Assembly: GCF_000706765.1 (NCBI RefSeq)
Contig: NZ_CP006018.1
Location: forward strand, 434,001-498,000
DNA: 64,000 bases
Source: Bifidobacterium [indicum] DSM 20214 = LMG 11587
GTDB lineage: Bacteria > Actinomycetota > Actinomycetes > Actinomycetales > Bifidobacteriaceae
Direction of reading: 5' to 3'
The notes under the pieces were generated by a model. That model was not told the DNA's origin. It saw only the letters and a list, made by a program, of their open reading frames with translations, and made no database searches. A program made the position numbers and the translations under genes. Of the stretch, positions 51,858 through 58,237 are shown piece after piece (position 1 is the stretch's first letter; each line of letters begins with the position of its first letter).

Positions 51858-51912
51858 ATGGGTACCTTTGACGGGAGGGATGTCCTCTTCAGGGTGGTTT
51901 TCTGTATCGGTT

Positions 51913-52387
51913 CTAGTGAGTATTGGACCGGGAGAAGGGGTCGAAATTCGAATCCTGGTTGCGGACGTATTCCATTTCAGTGGTTGCCCGGTCCGCAGCA
52001 TCAGGGCCGACCATGTCCTCAATGAAGGAGAGGGCCATATCGATACCGGCGGAGATGCCTGATGAGGTGCGGAAGTTCCCATCTACCGTCCAGCGGGCAT
52101 CACGAATCCAGGTGACTCGATCACTTACACTGGTCACCCAGTCGAAGGCCAGGTCGTTCGAAGTCGCTCGGCGGCCGTTCAACAGGCCTGTGGCTGCCAG
52201 CAGGGCCGACCCTGTACAGACGGTCAGCACATGTGAGGCTTCGCATGAAAGATCTCTGAGCCTATCCAACCACTGACGGTCCTTGCTGAGGGGACGTGTG
52301 CCATCGCCACCGGGGATGAGGAGAATCCCGCGATGGTCAATCTCGTTCGGTCCTACGGCGGAGACCGGAACATGACCTGCCCCACAC
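51913..52387 (-). pseudogene. DJ-1/PfpI family protein, N-terminally deleted copy
   Basis: The frame from CGAGHVPVSAVGPNE to the stop is almost identical to the intact copy at 57571-58176, including VCTGSALLAATG with the nucleophile Cys. The first 45 or so residues are gone. They are replaced at a junction near 52387 by sequence from within grpB, so the original start is lost. Any open frame reaching further upstream consists of antisense grpB sequence. This is a deletion-derived remnant. Confidence 0.85.
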
Positions 52388-52737
52388 CTCCTCCAGGTAA
52401 GGCCGACTGCGGATATGAAGCGAATCGTTGAAAAATTGGAAAGTGCCGGTTGGTTCGTCATGTACCAAGACATCAGTCAAGGCGAAATCGACCTCAACAA
52501 GGGGCTATACGGAAGACGGGTTCACCGACAAGGTCTATCGTCTGTACGTTAAGCGGCTTGGAGATTGGGACGAACTGGTTTTCCGGGACTATCTCGAAAA
52601 TCATCCGAAGGTGGCAGCTGACTATGCGGCGCTCAAACTCGACCTACTCTCAAAGTTCAAGTACACCGCACCGCCTACACCGAAGCCAAAACCGCCTTCA
52701 CTCGTACTGTTGTAAAACGGGCCAGAGCCGGCGAATA
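52388..52737 (+). pseudogene. GrpB-family remnant, truncated and twice frameshifted
   Basis: It begins inside the gene at sequence equal to the ADMKRIVEKLESAGW part of GrpB, so about 75 N-terminal residues are missing. The frame breaks at GGGG 52501-52504, the same place as in the right-arm copy. A second break (one base missing) follows after KFKY near 52660. The remainder matches GYTEDGF and LGDWDELVFRDYL of GrpB. No functional product is expected. Confidence 0.85.
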
Positions 52738-52937
52738 AGGGTCCGTGGTCATGTAAAGGACCGGTGGTGCGCTTGCTGTAACTTGCGGGCGCAGTGATGT
52801 TCTTCGACTGATTTGAGTTCCGCATCTGGCCCAGGCCGTTCCCCGTTTGCTATATCATGGCATACGAAACTGCGCAAGTGTAGTTATTGACTTGTGCAGG
52901 TGAGGAGGATAACAAAGGGGAAAGGACTCCGCTCATC

Positions 52938-53789
52938 ATGGATGATGAAACAACCACGCTGCCGACCGCTCAGGACGATACAGTAAGTCGGAAGTGCACG
53001 CAGTCAACACCACCGCCCGAGCGGAACAAAGAAATCAAACGGTTGCCAAAATCAGGCAGGAAATCCTCGTGGATAGCTGTGCTTGTAACTATCCTCCTTG
53101 CTATAGGTACTGCTTCTTGCAGCGAGGCAAAACCGACGGAATCCCTGGGACACCAAGATCTGAGTGTCAAATACGTCGGAACTAGGGAAGATCCTAAAGA
53201 AACACGCGTGGAATTCGAACGCGCCAAAACTAATCTGGCAGTTGCCTCTGATAAAGAAGACAGCTGGAACGTGGAGCAGGTAGCGGCGAAGGCCGAAAAG
53301 AAGGCTGATAAGAAGAAGTCGGGAAAGAAGAAGTCTGGTAAGAAGAACTCCGGAAAGAAGAAGTCTGGTAAGAAGAACTCCGGGAAGAAGAAGGCTGATA
53401 AGAAGAACTCCGAGAAGAAGAAGGAGAAGAAGAAGGAGAAGAAGAAGGCTGAAAAGAGGAAGGCCGAGAAGAAAAAAGCCGAAAAGAAGAAAGCCGAAGA
53501 GGAACGGGCAGCCAGGGAAAGGGCCGAACAGGAACAGGCGGCTCAGCAGGCTGCTGCTGAACAGGCGGCACGGCAGGCAGCTGAACAAGCGGCTCAGGAG
53601 CAAGCTCGTCAGGCTGCTGAGCAGGCGGCACGGCAGCAAGCCCAGATGCAGGCTCCTGCTCCGGATGCAAATGTGGTCTATCCGAACTGTGCCGCGGTAC
53701 GTGCCGCAGGTAGAGCTCCCCTGTATGCGGGGGAGCCTGGATACCACCCCGCACTTGATCGCGATCACGATGGTATAGCCTGCGAATAA
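52938..53789 (+). CDS. Lysine-rich membrane protein with C-terminal Excalibur domain (left arm)
   Basis: A protein of 283 residues starting MDDETTTLP at 52938, with GGGGAAAGG about 12 bases upstream. A basic stretch precedes a hydrophobic segment (about 45-62) ending in ASC, which could be a membrane anchor or atypical lipobox. The middle is dominated by Lys-rich repeats (KKKSG, KKNSG units, then KKAEKK), followed by an Ala/Gln-rich helix. The last 37 residues form an Excalibur domain: NCAAVRAAGRAPLY and DRDHDGIACE, with two Cys and a calcium-loop DxDxDG. It is a paralogue of the protein at 56003-56644. Probably envelope-exposed; function unknown. Confidence 0.85.
   Translation: MDDETTTLPTAQDDTVSRKCTQSTPPPERNKEIKRLPKSGRKSSWIAVLVTILLAIGTASCSEAKPTESLGHQDLSVKYVGTREDPKETRVEFERAKTNLAVASDKEDSWNVEQVAAKAEKKADKKKSGKKKSGKKNSGKKKSGKKNSGKKKADKKNSEKKKEKKKEKKKAEKRKAEKKKAEKKKAEEERAARERAEQEQAAQQAAAEQAARQAAEQAAQEQARQAAEQAARQQAQMQAPAPDANVVYPNCAAVRAAGRAPLYAGEPGYHPALDRDHDGIACE
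53308..53424 (+). repeat. 15-base tandem repeats encoding KKxSGK
   Basis: Near-identical 15-base units such as AAGAAGTCTGGTAAG and AAGAACTCCGGAAAG repeat about seven times inside the Lys-rich coding region. The right-arm paralogue lacks them, so the expansion is specific to this arm. Confidence 0.8.
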
Positions 53790-53815
53790 CGGACAAGGAG
53801 TCCGGCTATTTCAGT

Positions 53816-53862
53816 CCGGTCAGAGTGCTGCCGAGGTTCTTTGCGGCGAGTACTCTGACCGG
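53816..53862 (+). terminator. Terminator of the left-arm Excalibur gene
   Basis: CCGGTCAGAGT pairs with ACTCTGACCGG, extended inward by CT/AG and GCCG/CGGC pairing with a bulge, and is followed by GTTTGTGTTT. The right arm has a homologous hairpin at 55929-55975. Confidence 0.85.
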
Positions 53863-53979
53863 GTTTGTGTTTGGATCAGTTTATTGCGGTCTATGTCTGA
53901 TTAACGACTCCATATCCGGTTGAACGGTTGAATGTCTATACCGTCTTAATTGAAGAACATGCCAGGTGAAACAGGTCTC

Positions 53980-54008
53980 CCGTTCTTCTTGGTCGGCAAG
54001 AAGAACGG
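53980..54008. other. Perfect 12-base-pair hairpin of unknown role
   Basis: CCGTTCTTCTTG and CAAGAAGAACGG flank a GTCGG loop with no mismatch and no T-run on either side. It lies in the part of the left arm that the right arm lacks. Confidence 0.6.
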
Positions 54009-54141
54009 TGGGTGACCTTCATTGAATTAAAGGCAAGGCGTGAGTGTATGGACGCTCCGCGAGAGTGCAAGTGCTTATCCAGCTTCACTGAACACGGGAC
54101 CTCACAACCTGGACGCCAGGCGTGGTACAGTAGTACGCGTT

Positions 54142-54214
54142 GCCCCGGTAGCTCAGGAGATAGAGCACTTCTCTCCTAAAGAAGGTGTCGTGCGTTCGAA
54201 TCGCATCCGGGGCA
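54142..54214 (+). tRNA. tRNA-Arg (CCT), copy 1
   Basis: A 73-base cloverleaf: acceptor GCCCCGG/CCGGGGC with discriminator A, anticodon stem CTTCT/AGAAG, loop CTCCTAA giving anticodon CCT, and T-loop TTCGAAT. CCA is not encoded. It differs from copy 2 (minus strand, 55755-55827) at one base: A at 54158 in the D-loop, where copy 2 has G. This may affect the conserved G18-G19 pair. The minus-strand HTH gene overlaps its 3' half. Confidence 0.93.
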
Positions 54215-54562
54215 CTCTGACGACTCAGGCATAAGGAAATACCTGGGCATTGCAGCCCCTGCCGGAGTCAGTGAACCTTGTTGTATACCCATCCTGTTGA
54301 TTGTCTTCATCATGGAATCATCCATAAGCGCCTCGGGGGTGGTGTCCAAAAAGTTGGCTGTATTGACCAAATCAGGAACCGACCACTGGGTTTTCCCGCT
54401 CAGTTTTACGGATATGGTGGAACGGCGCACTCCGAGGTAATCCGCCAAGCTCGACTGGCTCTTGCCGGTGGCGGTCAGCATGACTTTTACGTTGAAGGAA
54501 ATAACGTTCTCCACCTGATTAGGATCGAGTCGCGTCACTTCCATTTCTTGCACTGAACTCAT
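54176..54562 (-). CDS. HTH (XRE-like) DNA-binding protein ending inside tRNA-Arg 1 (left arm)
   Basis: A protein of 128 residues starting MSSVQEMEV behind AGGAAG. The helix-turn-helix is in SQSSLADYLGVRRSTISVKLSG, with a second helical region to ALMDDS. The tail YFLMPESSECPGCDSNARHLL reads into the antisense strand of the tRNA gene, and the TAG stop overlaps the anticodon. The right-arm homologue ends identically. It resembles phage or plasmid repressors and is divergent from the small HTH gene, across a region with an inverted repeat. Confidence 0.8.
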   Translation of the reverse strand: MSSVQEMEVTRLDPNQVENVISFNVKVMLTATGKSQSSLADYLGVRRSTISVKLSGKTQWSVPDLVNTANFLDTTPEALMDDSMMKTINRMGIQQGSLTPAGAAMPRYFLMPESSECPGCDSNARHLL

Positions 54563-54584
54563 TGCACTTCCTTCTACTATGTCC

Positions 54585-54611
54585 TTGTGATAGCAACACT
54601 TTACATCACAA
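54585..54611. promoter_or_regulatory. Candidate operator between divergent HTH genes (left arm)
   Basis: TTGTGAT at 54585-54591 and ATCACAA at 54605-54611 are perfect inverted repeats whose centres are 20 bases (two helical turns) apart. They sit between the starts of the two divergent HTH genes, as in a CI/Cro-type switch. Confidence 0.5.
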
Positions 54612-54648
54612 CTTGCGTTTCTTCCAGTTCAACACTATGTTGTTCAAT

Positions 54649-54890
54649 ATGAATGAACTAGTACATGCTGGCGTGAACACGAACATGAAGCAGTGGCTAG
54701 CTGATCAGCATATTTCTTACAGGGCTCTGGCTCGGATACTTCGTATCTCTTCCTCGTCAGTCTGCAAGAAAGTAAATGGAGCGTCAGTTGGCAGGCAGAC
54801 GAGCTGCATACATTGAACAAGCAATTCGGCCTTTCTGCTGATTTTGTTCTCGGCTTCTGCGACAAGGCAAAGGTTCTTCAGCCTGTATGA
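54649..54890 (+). pseudogene. Small HTH protein, frameshifted (left arm)
   Basis: From ATG 54649 the frame reads MNELVHAGVNTNMKQWL, then SYRALARILRISSSSVCKKVNG, and then breaks near 54780. In another frame it resumes as VSWQADELHTLNKQFGLSADFVLGF and ends at TGA 54888-54890. The joined sequence aligns over its length with the intact 70-residue protein at 55038-55250 (shared GLS-DFV-G). One or two bases have been gained or lost, so the gene is probably dead. Confidence 0.75.
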
Positions 54891-54892
54891 GA

Positions 54893-54927
54893 TACGGCTT
54901 CCCGTCTAATGCAGATAGGAAGCCGTA
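54893..54927. other. Hairpin at the palindrome centre
   Basis: TACGGCTTCC at 54893-54902 pairs with GGAAGCCGTA at 54918-54927. No T-run follows. It starts just after the frameshifted small HTH gene and may end its transcript, or be a relic of the palindrome centre. Confidence 0.5.
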
Positions 54928-55037
54928 GATGAAATGACCGAAGGTACATCCAGACAATCTTGGCGGAGCGACCGGATGCGCCTGCTGACATTTCATGGGA
55001 GGTCTCTTGGTCGTCAAACCAGGGGCTCCTTTTGATA

Positions 55038-55250
55038 TCAGTCAGTTTTGGCTAGCGGGCTGTCACTAATGCCAATGACAAAATCGGACGATAAACCGAA
55101 TAACCGATGAAGGGCAATCAAGTCGCTTTGCTGCCAGGTGGTATTACCTCGCACTTTATTGCTTACGTTCACAGGAGTCTGGTTCAGCATCCCGGCAAGA
55201 GCAGAATAAGAAAGGCCTCTACTCTGCATCCAGTGGTACATGTTTGACAT
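55038..55250 (-). CDS. Small HTH (Cro-like) protein (right arm)
   Basis: A protein of 70 residues, MSNMYHWMQSRGLSYSALA, possibly starting at the second Met (55241). The helix-turn-helix spans LSYSALAGMLNQTPVNVSNKVRG, followed by a TTWQQSDLIALHRLFGL helix pair. It diverges from the larger HTH gene, a classic repressor/antirepressor layout. Its ribosome site is weak. Base composition is less GC-rich than the chromosome around it. Confidence 0.7.
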   Translation of the reverse strand: MSNMYHWMQSRGLSYSALAGMLNQTPVNVSNKVRGNTTWQQSDLIALHRLFGLSSDFVIGISDSPLAKTD

Positions 55251-55376
55251 AGCCGCTCACTTTGCTTGTTAACTGACATTTAAACAGTAGAGCAAATTTT
55301 GACTTTGTGCAAACCAGGTGTTTAGATGATAAAGAGCAATTCGTTCTGTTAAGCAGATTGAGTGGAGTGATTCACA

Positions 55377-55793
55377 ATGAGTACCGCGAGTATAGAGGCT
55401 GTGCAAGAGACCTCGTACGATCATGCAGATTATGAAGACCAGGTGCTTCGTTTCAACATAAAGATGCTGCTCGCCGCTTCTCCCAGCATTAATCAGACGA
55501 GCCTCGCCAAGCTTTTCCATATCACGACGGCGGGAATGTCATACAAACTCAACAGACCAGGCCGCTTATCTTTCAAGGATGTAATCCTTATCGCCGATGA
55601 ATTAGGCACCTCAGTACAAGCCCTGATGGACGATTCCATCTACCGGCGCATGACGGAATGGGGTCAGGTAAACCAGAAGGGTACAGAAATAGGTAGTCAG
55701 GACCTAGTTGCAGAGAGCAAAGCTAGGTATTTCGTTATGCCTGAGTCTTCAGAGTGCCCCGGATGCGATTCGAACGCACGACACCTTCTTTAG
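55377..55793 (+). CDS. HTH (XRE-like) DNA-binding protein ending inside tRNA-Arg 2 (right arm)
   Basis: A protein of 138 residues beginning MSTASIEAVQE, with GGAG nine bases upstream. The HTH region is NQTSLAKLFHITTAGMSYKLNR and is followed by ADELGTSVQALMDDSI, shared in pattern with the left-arm protein. Identity between the two is low except at the end, where YFVMPESSECPGCDSNARHLL is nearly the same because the frame enters the antisense strand of tRNA-Arg 2 and stops opposite its anticodon. Confidence 0.8.
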   Translation: MSTASIEAVQETSYDHADYEDQVLRFNIKMLLAASPSINQTSLAKLFHITTAGMSYKLNRPGRLSFKDVILIADELGTSVQALMDDSIYRRMTEWGQVNQKGTEIGSQDLVAESKARYFVMPESSECPGCDSNARHLL

Positions 55794-55827
55794 GAGAGAA
55801 GTGCTCTATCCCCTGAGCTACCGGGGC
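55755..55827 (-). tRNA. tRNA-Arg (CCT), copy 2
   Basis: Same 73-base cloverleaf as copy 1 with anticodon CCT, but with G in the D-loop (AGGGGAT), the more usual sequence. TACAGT about ten bases upstream may be its -10 element, with CCGACA 16 bases before that. It is oriented toward copy 1, so the two are an inverted pair about 1.5 kb apart. Confidence 0.94.
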
Positions 55828-55928
55828 AACGCGTACTACTGTACCACGCCTGGCGCCCGTGTCGGGAGGCTCCGTGTTCTGGGAAACGGGGCACTCCGTG
55901 AACCCTGCAACCTGAATGCCTGGAAAAT

Positions 55929-55975
55929 CCGGTCAGAGCACTTGCCATGAGGAATCTCGGCAGCACTGTGACCGG
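55929..55975 (-). terminator. Terminator of the right-arm Excalibur gene
   Basis: On the minus strand CCGGTCACAGTGCTGCC pairs with GGCAAGTGCTCTGACCGG, with one bulge and one mismatch, followed by ATTTTCC. It is homologous to the left-arm hairpin at 53816. Confidence 0.8.
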
Positions 55976-56002
55976 ACTGAAATATGCAGGTTTCCTTACC
56001 TG

Positions 56003-56644
56003 TTATTCGCAGGCTATACCATCGTGGTCGCGATCGAGTGCAGAACGATACCCAGGCTGCCCTGCATAAAGAGGGGCTCTGCCAGCCGCTCGTACCGCAT
56101 CGCAGTTTTGATAGTACGCATACGTATCTGGCGCAGGAGCCGACATCTGGGATCTCTGCTGAATTTGCTGCTGAGCCTGCTGTTGGGCCTGCTGAGCCGC
56201 CTTTTCCTGCTCGGCCTTTTCCTGCTCGACCCGTTCTTGCTCGGCTTTTTCCTGCTCGGCTTTTTCCTTGGCTGCCTTCTCCTCTGCCGCCTTCTTCTCT
56301 TCCTGCTCCTTATCCCACATATCCGCTTTCTGCGAGGCCGTCTTCAAATCGCTCTTGGCGCTATCAAGCTCCATGCGCATTCTTTGAAGTTCATTCTGGG
56401 TATCGGAGTACTTGGCACTCAGGTTTTTGTATTCATGAGATTCAGTAGGTTTTGTCTCGCCGCATGAGGCTGCACCTATACCAACAAGAAAAGCCACAAG
56501 CGAAGTGGCCCACGGGAACTTCTTCCCGGATTCTGACGGCTGCTTTGAATCCTGAGGCTCCTCCGGAGAGGGCGATGACGGCGTTGACTTTCGATTTACC
56601 GTACTGGTCAGGATTTTCGACATTCTTTTTGTTGCATCATCCAT
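56003..56644 (-). CDS. Glutamate-rich coiled-coil membrane protein with Excalibur domain (right arm)
   Basis: A protein of 213 residues starting MDDATKRMSK, with GAGGGGAAAGG upstream. The layout equals the left-arm paralogue: hydrophilic start, hydrophobic segment ending in AASC, and a KPTES motif. A long helix follows, then the Excalibur domain NCDAVRAAGRAPLY...DRDHDGIACE. The helix here is Glu/Lys/Gln-rich (repeats of EQEKA), a likely coiled coil, where the paralogue has Lys-rich repeats. The Excalibur domain suggests calcium-dependent envelope function; the actual role is unknown. Confidence 0.85.
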   Translation of the reverse strand: MDDATKRMSKILTSTVNRKSTPSSPSPEEPQDSKQPSESGKKFPWATSLVAFLVGIGAASCGETKPTESHEYKNLSAKYSDTQNELQRMRMELDSAKSDLKTASQKADMWDKEQEEKKAAEEKAAKEKAEQEKAEQERVEQEKAEQEKAAQQAQQQAQQQIQQRSQMSAPAPDTYAYYQNCDAVRAAGRAPLYAGQPGYRSALDRDHDGIACE

Positions 56645-56833
56645 GATGGACAGAGCCTTTCCCCTCTGTTGATCCCCTTCGACCTGCAGCGAGTCAATTA
56701 CAGCACTCTTGCGCAGTCCGCATACCATAATACCGGAAACAGGATGCGAGCCGGACCGGCAGTACTTGAGGTGAAGCTACGCCCACAAAGCGGGACCGCA
56801 TGCACTGCCGGCTCTCTACACCACCACGGCCCC

Positions 56834-57404
56834 TTATTCGTCGTTCCTGGCCCGCTTTACAACATTACGAATGAAGTCTGTTTTGGCTTCGGTGTAGGCG
56901 GGGCGGTTGTATTTGAACTTTGAGAGCAGGTCGAGTTTGAGCGCCGCATAGTCAGCTGCTACTTTCGGATGACCTTCGAGATAGTCCCGGAAAACCAGTT
57001 CGTCCCAATCTCCAAGCCGCTTAAGGTGCAGATGGTAGACCTTGTCGGCGAATCCGTCTTCCGTATAGCCCCTTGCTGAGGTCGACTTCGCCTCCACTGA
57101 TGTCTTGGTACATGACGAACCAGCCCGCGCTTTCCAGCTCTTCAACGATTCGCCTCATATCCGTATTCGGTCTTACCTGGAGGAGGATATCCACAATTGG
57201 CTTGGCCAACAACCCCGGAACGGAGGTACTGCCAATGTGGTCGATCCTGCTGATTGCATCCCCCAATGTGCTGAGCAGATTCTCTTCTTCCTCCTTGTAA
57301 TAGTCCTCCCACACATCTTGGTGCTCCACAAGCTCAATGGGAAACAAGCGCCATAGTTCTTCCTTGCTCATTTCCGTCAGCCGTTTCCTTGTCATGACCA
57401 GCAT
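56834..57404 (-). pseudogene. GrpB-family protein with one frameshift (right arm)
   Basis: Residues up to SGGEVDLSKG (nucleotidyltransferase-fold GrpB/UPF0157: FPIELVEHQDVW, RIDHIGSTSVPGL, KPIVDILL) are in one frame. After GGGG, CCCC on the plus strand at 57069-57072, the rest continues in another: GYTEDGFADKVYHLHLKRLGDWDELVFRDYL to the end. Removing one G restores a full-length protein of about 189 residues. The same G-run breaks the left-arm copy. A true pseudogene, a programmed shift or an assembly error are all possible. Confidence 0.85.
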
Positions 57405-57570
57405 CCCCCCGCTTGGTAGATTGGATATCAGCCCAGAGACTATGCCTCATAGGCTTGATAGGGTAATCATAAGTTGCACCTGCCGGTTTCGGTGCAGGTC
57501 TTTTCCACGGCAAGGAAGTCATAAGTCCAGATTTCTTGATTGCGGACACCGGACGCGAGGAGCCTAACCA

Positions 57571-58176
57571 ATGGATATGAACATCAACATACTGTTGTTC
57601 GAGGAATTCGAACCTCTCGACGTCTTCGGGCCTTTCGAGGTTTTCTTCAACACCCCTGGTGTCCGAAACCGGCTCTTCTGCCTGGATGGGCCGCAGGTGG
57701 TGTGTGGGGCTGGTCATGTTCCGGTCTCCGCCGTAGGACCGAACGAGATTGACCATCGTGGGATTCTCCTCATCCCCGGTGGCGATGGCACGCGTCCCCT
57801 CAGCAAGGACCGTCGGTGGTTGGATAGGCTCGGAGAACTTGCATCCGAAGCTTCACAGGTGCTGACCGTCTGTACAGGGTCGGCCCTGCTGGCAGCCACA
57901 GGCCTGTTGGACGGCCGCCGAGCGACTTCGAACGACCTGGCCTTCGACTGGGTGACCAGTGTAAGTGATCGAGTCACCTGGATTCGTGATGCCCGCTGGA
58001 CGGTAGATGGGAACTTCCGCACCTCATCAGGCATCTCCGCCGGTATCGATATGGCCCTCTCCTTCATTGAGGACATGGTCGGCCCTGATGCTGCGGACCG
58101 GGCAACCACTGAAATGGAATACGTCCGCAACAGGGATTCGAATTTCGACCCCTTCTCCCGGTCCAATACTCACTAG
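57571..58176 (+). CDS. DJ-1/PfpI family protein (intact copy)
   Basis: A protein of 201 residues from ATG 57571 behind GAGGAG. It has the class I glutamine amidotransferase-like fold. The nucleophile elbow is TVCTGSALLAATG, with the Cys at the strand-helix turn, preceded by GILLIPGG. The FEPLDVFGPFEVF start matches DJ-1/PfpI proteins related to the N-terminal domain of GlxA-type regulators. The C-terminal DNA-binding domain of those regulators is missing. It diverges from grpB. Possible roles include glyoxalase-, amidase- or isonitrile hydratase-like activity; none can be chosen. Confidence 0.87.
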   Translation: MDMNINILLFEEFEPLDVFGPFEVFFNTPGVRNRLFCLDGPQVVCGAGHVPVSAVGPNEIDHRGILLIPGGDGTRPLSKDRRWLDRLGELASEASQVLTVCTGSALLAATGLLDGRRATSNDLAFDWVTSVSDRVTWIRDARWTVDGNFRTSSGISAGIDMALSFIEDMVGPDAADRATTEMEYVRNRDSNFDPFSRSNTH

Positions 58177-58237
58177 AACCGATACAGAAAACCACCCTGA
58201 AGAGGACATCGTACACGTTTCAGGAAGAAGGGATGAT

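What the first reader, a model, noticed from the sequence alone, without database searches (positions are those of the whole stretch)
51879..58210. A 6.3-kb imperfect palindrome with six gene pairs
Genes on the two sides of about 54,970 occur in mirror order: pfpI, grpB, Excalibur protein, tRNA-Arg(CCT), larger HTH, small HTH. Coordinate sums of matching features stay close to 110,000, as expected for an inverted duplication. The outer limits are sharp (51879 and 58210). The outer pfpI parts and the tRNAs are nearly identical while the HTH genes are strongly diverged. An old duplication with later gene conversion at the outer parts, or two insertion events of related elements, could explain this. 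No recombinase is present.
Basis: seen in the sequence. Interest (0 to 1): 0.85.

Follow-up and report, generated by a model that had tools for sequence, protein, structure and literature searches.

The report
Two old prophage ends, facing inward
A 6.3-kb mirror-image stretch of a bee-gut Bifidobacterium chromosome turns out to be the native tRNA-Arg locus plus a second, inverted copy that diverged long ago, with the immunity switches of two different vanished phages left back to back in the middle.

Summary
The palindrome is real: arms 51879-54248 and 55725-58210 are homologous, and the left arm has lost 515 bp. It is not one duplicated block.

(1) The two central HTH pairs are divergent repressor/Cro genes of tRNA-integrated prophages of the integration-dependent immunity type. 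Both repressor ORFs run antisense into tRNA-Arg(CCT) and stop inside it. At least 23 other Bifidobacteriaceae have homologues that stop inside tRNA genes, of eight kinds in all. The two repressors are not sisters (AU p = 2e-5), so they come from two different phages.

(2) The only other genome of the species held (G014) has one arm, the right. In the right/G014 comparison the flank, Exc, spacer and grpB are 1-6% diverged. The left arm is diverged 8-14 times as much, uniformly (p = 0.91), about as far as a sister species. Its tRNA nevertheless differs at one base, so it was probably the sole copy somewhere else.

(3) Only the outermost ~350 bp were recently homogenised.

Best reading: a xenologous copy of the locus, joined inverted to the native one. 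Each copy kept its prophage's immunity end, and one deletion removed both phage bodies. An old in-genome duplication, later re-invaded by phages, is the main rival. How the copy became inverted is unknown.

The parts
51879..52387 (-). outer part of left arm: pfpI (DJ-1/PfpI) remnant; outermost ~350 bp 99% identical to the right arm
52387..52388 (.). deletion junction: 515 bp present in right arm (57187-57701) and in G014 are missing; pfpI joined to grpB remnant
52388..52745 (+). left grpB remnant, frameshifted
52887..53789 (+). left gene with C-terminal Excalibur calcium-binding domain, 300 aa
54142..54215 (+). left tRNA-Arg(CCT); single G-to-A change at base 17 (probably D-loop G18) seen in none of the other tRNA-Arg(CCT) sequences compared in the genus
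54176..54562 (-). left phage repressor, 128 aa, ORF ends antisense inside the tRNA (prophage form of an integration-dependent immunity repressor)
54674..54894 (+). left Cro-like HTH gene, divergent from the repressor, frameshifted
54895..55037 (.). junction between the two phage remnants; contains hairpins between convergent cro genes
55038..55250 (-). right Cro-like HTH gene, 70 aa, intact; of those compared closest to the cro of the G026 tRNA-Lys prophage
55377..55793 (+). right phage repressor, 138 aa, ORF ends antisense inside the tRNA; different repressor lineage from the left one
55754..55827 (-). right (native) tRNA-Arg(CCT), identical to the G014 copy
56003..56728 (-). right Excalibur-domain gene, 241 aa
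56834..57404 (-). right grpB, frameshifted by one base in a G run; intact in G014
57571..58176 (+). right pfpI, intact, 201 aa
57860..58210 (.). recently homogenised tract shared with 51879-52229 (3 differences in 351; 17 between right arm and G014)

Best explanation
The right arm (tRNA-Arg(CCT), Excalibur gene, grpB, pfpI) is the native chromosomal locus. The left arm is a second version of the same locus that evolved separately for about as long as a sister species, probably in another lineage where its tRNA was the only tRNA-Arg(CCT). It was later joined in inverted orientation next to the native one. Each copy had a different integration-dependent-immunity prophage in its tRNA. The repressor gene of such a phage lies next to the attachment site, and in the prophage it finishes inside the antisense strand of the tRNA. 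With the two prophages facing each other, a single deletion could have removed both phage bodies and left repressor and cro of each back to back. Afterwards the redundant left copy decayed (515-bp deletion, frameshifts, tRNA change), and ~350 bp at the outer end were copied between the arms, most likely from right to left. If expressed, the two intact repressors would still block superinfection by the two matching phages; the arms permit gene conversion and inversion of the centre. Shown: homology, single-arm relative, non-sister repressors ending in the tRNA, uniform extra divergence, conserved left tRNA, one homogenised outer tract. Inferred: donor, inverted joining, single deletion, immunity.
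For: Single-arm locus in G014, with the tRNA adjoining EEP-xseB-xseA across most of the genus. Repressor ORFs end inside antisense tRNA here and in at least 23 other genomes, over eight tRNA types. In three relatives attL/attR repeats bracket the phage, the integrase lies beside attR, and the rejoined viral repressor is 28-41 aa longer. Phage homologues are annotated immunity repressors with divergent HTH gene and integrase in the same order. Sisterhood of the two repressors is rejected, AU p 2.3e-5. Left/right to right/G014 differences are homogeneous across flank, Exc, spacer and grpB (356:42, p 0.91), while the outer pfpI tract is 3:17 (p 3e-13). The left tRNA has 1 of 74 bases changed where 8-34 would be expected at neighbouring rates (p 0.003 to 1e-18). 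Left/right divergence is comparable to that from the nearest other species held.
Against: No genome held carries the left-arm version, so the donor is unseen. Conversion confined to the tRNA could also keep it conserved. GC content of the arms is alike (0.53 against 0.545), giving no foreign signature. Both arms share a one-base insertion in grpB that G014 lacks. The inverted joining has no visible machinery.
Confidence: 0.58

Rival explanations
1. Old inverted duplication within this lineage. tRNA-Exc-grpB-pfpI was duplicated long before the split from G014, each tRNA copy later received a different prophage, both prophages decayed, and G014 lost the left arm.
For: Needs no donor. Arms have similar GC. 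Conversion between arms is seen and could have kept the tRNA alike. Both arms share a grpB frameshift.
Against: A redundant tRNA copy would be expected to collect many changes over a time that altered 27-46% of neighbouring non-coding sites; it has one. No other genus member held has two copies, and a clean loss in G014 is required.
Confidence: 0.27
2. One inverted duplication of all six genes, with the HTH pairs as paralogues that diverged fast.
For: Mirror order and weak alignability of the HTH region right up to the centre.
Against: The two repressors group with repressors of different prophages, AU p 2.3e-5; the right Cro is closer to the G026 Cro (36/64) than to the left Cro (26/63).
Confidence: 0.05
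3. Assembly artefact, or a wrong order of the centre.
For: An inverted repeat of 509 bp at 97% could mislead a short-read assembler about the orientation of the centre.
Against: The inner arms differ by 10-46%, so they cannot be one sequence read twice; the genome is one closed contig. Only the orientation of the centre is in doubt.
Confidence: 0.04

Closest known systems
Integration-dependent immunity of mycobacteriophage BPs and relatives (PMC4557955; Broussard et al. 2013)
   Same: Repressor gene with the attachment site in its 3' part, divergent Cro-like gene; integration swaps the repressor's C-terminus.
   Different: Here only repressor and cro remain, without integrase or phage body, and two different cassettes face each other.
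Bifidobacterial tRNA-Met prophages Bb423phi2 and 689b-1 (PMC6109161)
   Same: Same type of switch in the same bacterial family: repressor next to the tRNA attachment site, longer viral form.
   Different: Those are near-intact 18-kb prophages at tRNA-Met; here two remnants at tRNA-Arg(CCT). The repressor family seen here uses eight kinds of tRNA gene.
Inverted duplications in bacterial genomes (tandem-inversion duplications; from general knowledge)
   Same: Large inverted repeat around a short centre, homogenised in part.
   Different: The inner arms are diverged to species level, and the centre comes from two separate phage insertions.

Membership tests
integration-dependent immunity repressor/cro cassette | prophage repressor ORF ends within the att core overlapping the host tRNA | tested here: met
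   Both repressors stop at base 54176 / 55793, inside the antisense strand of tRNA-Arg(CCT).
integration-dependent immunity repressor/cro cassette | divergently transcribed Cro-like HTH gene | tested here: met
   HTH genes on the opposite strand, weak PHROG regulator matches; left one frameshifted.
integration-dependent immunity repressor/cro cassette | tyrosine integrase gene directly beyond attP | tested here: not met
   No integrase in the locus; the genome's three PF00589 matches lie 140 kb or more away. Relatives G081, G091 and G041 have one beside attR. The locus is therefore a remnant, not a complete system.
integration-dependent immunity repressor/cro cassette | viral repressor longer, with ssrA-like degradation tag | tested here: inconclusive
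   Cannot be rebuilt in the window (no attR). In three relatives the viral form is 28, 32 and 41 aa longer but ends in no canonical AA tag.
simple inverted duplication | both arms derive from one sequence by one event | tested here: not met
   Outer arms homologous, but the HTH pairs are not sister sequences.

The most novel reading that the evidence does not exclude
The locus is a retained double-immunity module: the cell keeps two unlike phage repressors without the phages, protecting it against two families that use the same tRNA, and the inverted arms allow conversion and inversion of the centre.
Probability: 0.13. Interest if true: 0.65.

Novelty: new variant of a known kind. Interest (0 to 1): 0.42.

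Why it matters
It shows how a tRNA attachment site, its neighbouring genes and the immunity ends of two phages can be combined into a palindrome that keeps two intact repressors after the phages are gone. It also brings to light a large bifidobacterial repressor family whose C-terminus is written by the antisense strand of the tRNA used as attachment site, at eight kinds of tRNA gene in more than 20 species. That is a natural data set for testing how phages change target while keeping an integration-dependent switch.

Tried and rejected
A conversion gradient along the whole arm: rejected, since left/right divergence is a constant multiple of right/G014 divergence except in the outermost tract. 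HTH pairs as duplicates: rejected. A donor of the left arm among 189 genomes of the family and in viral contigs: none. The genome-contig scan with GrpB gave only distant GrpB proteins. The 54 bp left of the palindrome and the ~110 bp at the matching place in G014 have no relatives in the genus. The right repressor has no tblastn match in annotated phages. A central quasi-palindrome (54926-54992, 18 of 23) could be the join or a terminator between convergent genes; not decided.

Full report
Observation. The inverted repeat is real. The arms 51879-54248 and 55725-58210 align in mirror order with E-values down to 0: 97.4% over the outer 509 bp, ~90% over grpB, ~69-77% over the Excalibur-domain gene, 92.5% over tRNA-Arg(CCT) and its flanks. 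Pfam confirms DJ-1/PfpI, GrpB and Excalibur, and ARAGORN both tRNAs. The left arm lacks 515 bp (equivalent to 57187-57701), which truncates pfpI and fuses it to a grpB remnant. The locus exists once in a closed genome of 1,734,546 bp. From genome size and content the organism is probably Bifidobacterium indicum, and G014 (1,755,151 bp) probably the B. coryneforme type strain. This identification is from memory; the two are >98% ANI according to PMC10092428.

Single-arm form. G014, the only other genome of the species held, has LacI, ~110 bp, tRNA-Arg(CCT), Excalibur gene, grpB (intact, 189 aa), pfpI and then the conserved EEP-xseB-xseA genes. Most other genus members have one tRNA-Arg(CCT) just upstream of EEP-xseB-xseA, without Exc-grpB-pfpI. 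One arm is thus ancestral, and the right arm is the native one (95% overall to G014).

The centre. The larger HTH ORFs end inside the tRNA, on its antisense strand. The same holds for homologues in at least 23 other Bifidobacteriaceae genomes, at tRNA-Arg(CCT), Arg(TCT), Lys(TTT), Lys(CTT), Asn(GTT), Glu(TTC), Leu(CAA) and Met(CAT). In G081, G091 and G041 a second copy of the tRNA 3' end lies far away with a tyrosine integrase beside it, and rejoining the ends gives a repressor 28, 32 and 41 residues longer. PHROG and tblastn matches are phage transcriptional and immunity repressors, and the mycobacteriophage and Gordonia phage loci have the order HTH gene (opposite strand), repressor, integrase. 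This is the architecture of integration-dependent immunity (PMC4557955), reported in bifidobacteria for two tRNA-Met prophages (PMC6109161). The centre is therefore two prophage ends without phage bodies. A clear degradation tag was not seen.

Two phages, not one duplication. In the repressor tree the left protein groups with G041, G142, G091 and others, the right with G070/G081 and G026. Holding the two together costs 56 log units, AU p = 2.3e-5. The tree has only 70 columns and several weak forks, but the right Cro is also closer to the G026 Cro than to the left Cro.

History of the arms. Differences left/right against right/G014 are 47:4 (tRNA 5' flank), 225:27 (Exc), 48:6 (spacer) and 36:5 (grpB): homogeneous, p = 0.91. 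In corrected distance the left arm is 8 to 14 times as far from the right as the right is from G014, comparable to the nearest other species held (7 to 10 for MFS, LacI and EEP; more for three genes that differ little from G014). The outermost 351 bp break the rule (3:17, p = 3e-13), with a switch near 57858-57876 (permutation p = 0.012), so they were homogenised recently. The left tRNA differs from the right at one base of 74, where 8 to 34 changes would be expected at neighbouring rates. The right copy matches 23 of 25 other tRNA-Arg(CCT) sequences of the genus exactly. A redundant copy would not be so conserved, so the left arm probably evolved where it was the only copy. The one change is at base 17, most likely G18 of the D-loop, and with the truncated pfpI and frameshifts it looks like recent decay.

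Mechanism. The favoured account is a foreign version of the locus joined inverted to the native one, each with its own prophage, then one deletion through both phage bodies. The inverted joining is inferred and has no direct evidence. An old resident duplication with later, independent phage insertions remains possible. Whether the repressors are expressed and protective is untested.

Noticed in passing
L175-L216 (repressor loci): A family of bifidobacterial phage repressors ends inside the antisense strand of tRNA genes at eight kinds of tRNA, in at least 23 genomes besides this one; the published bifidobacterial case found was tRNA-Met only.
   Followed up: partly
window 57050-57080 and 52485-52515: grpB carries the same extra G (GGGG for GGG) in both arms but not in G014, although flanking sites set the left arm apart: parallel slippage, a very short conversion, or homopolymer sequencing error.
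   Followed up: no
L183 (G025:C8:36000-54500): Two further repressor copies, one followed directly by a tyrosine integrase, lie 8-12 kb from tRNA-Arg(CCT): apparently stacked prophage remnants at the same hotspot.
   Followed up: partly
L058 545-575 (G003:C1:476544-476574): A lone copy of the tRNA-Arg 3' end 5.3 kb from the tRNA, probably the far end of another element at this site.
   Followed up: no
L057 8557-10290 (G014): G014 has about 1.5 kb more than this genome between the membrane-protein gene and EEP.
   Followed up: no
L174 / L189 (G070): A repressor nearly identical to that of G081 but without a tRNA at its end, perhaps the viral or excised form.
   Followed up: no
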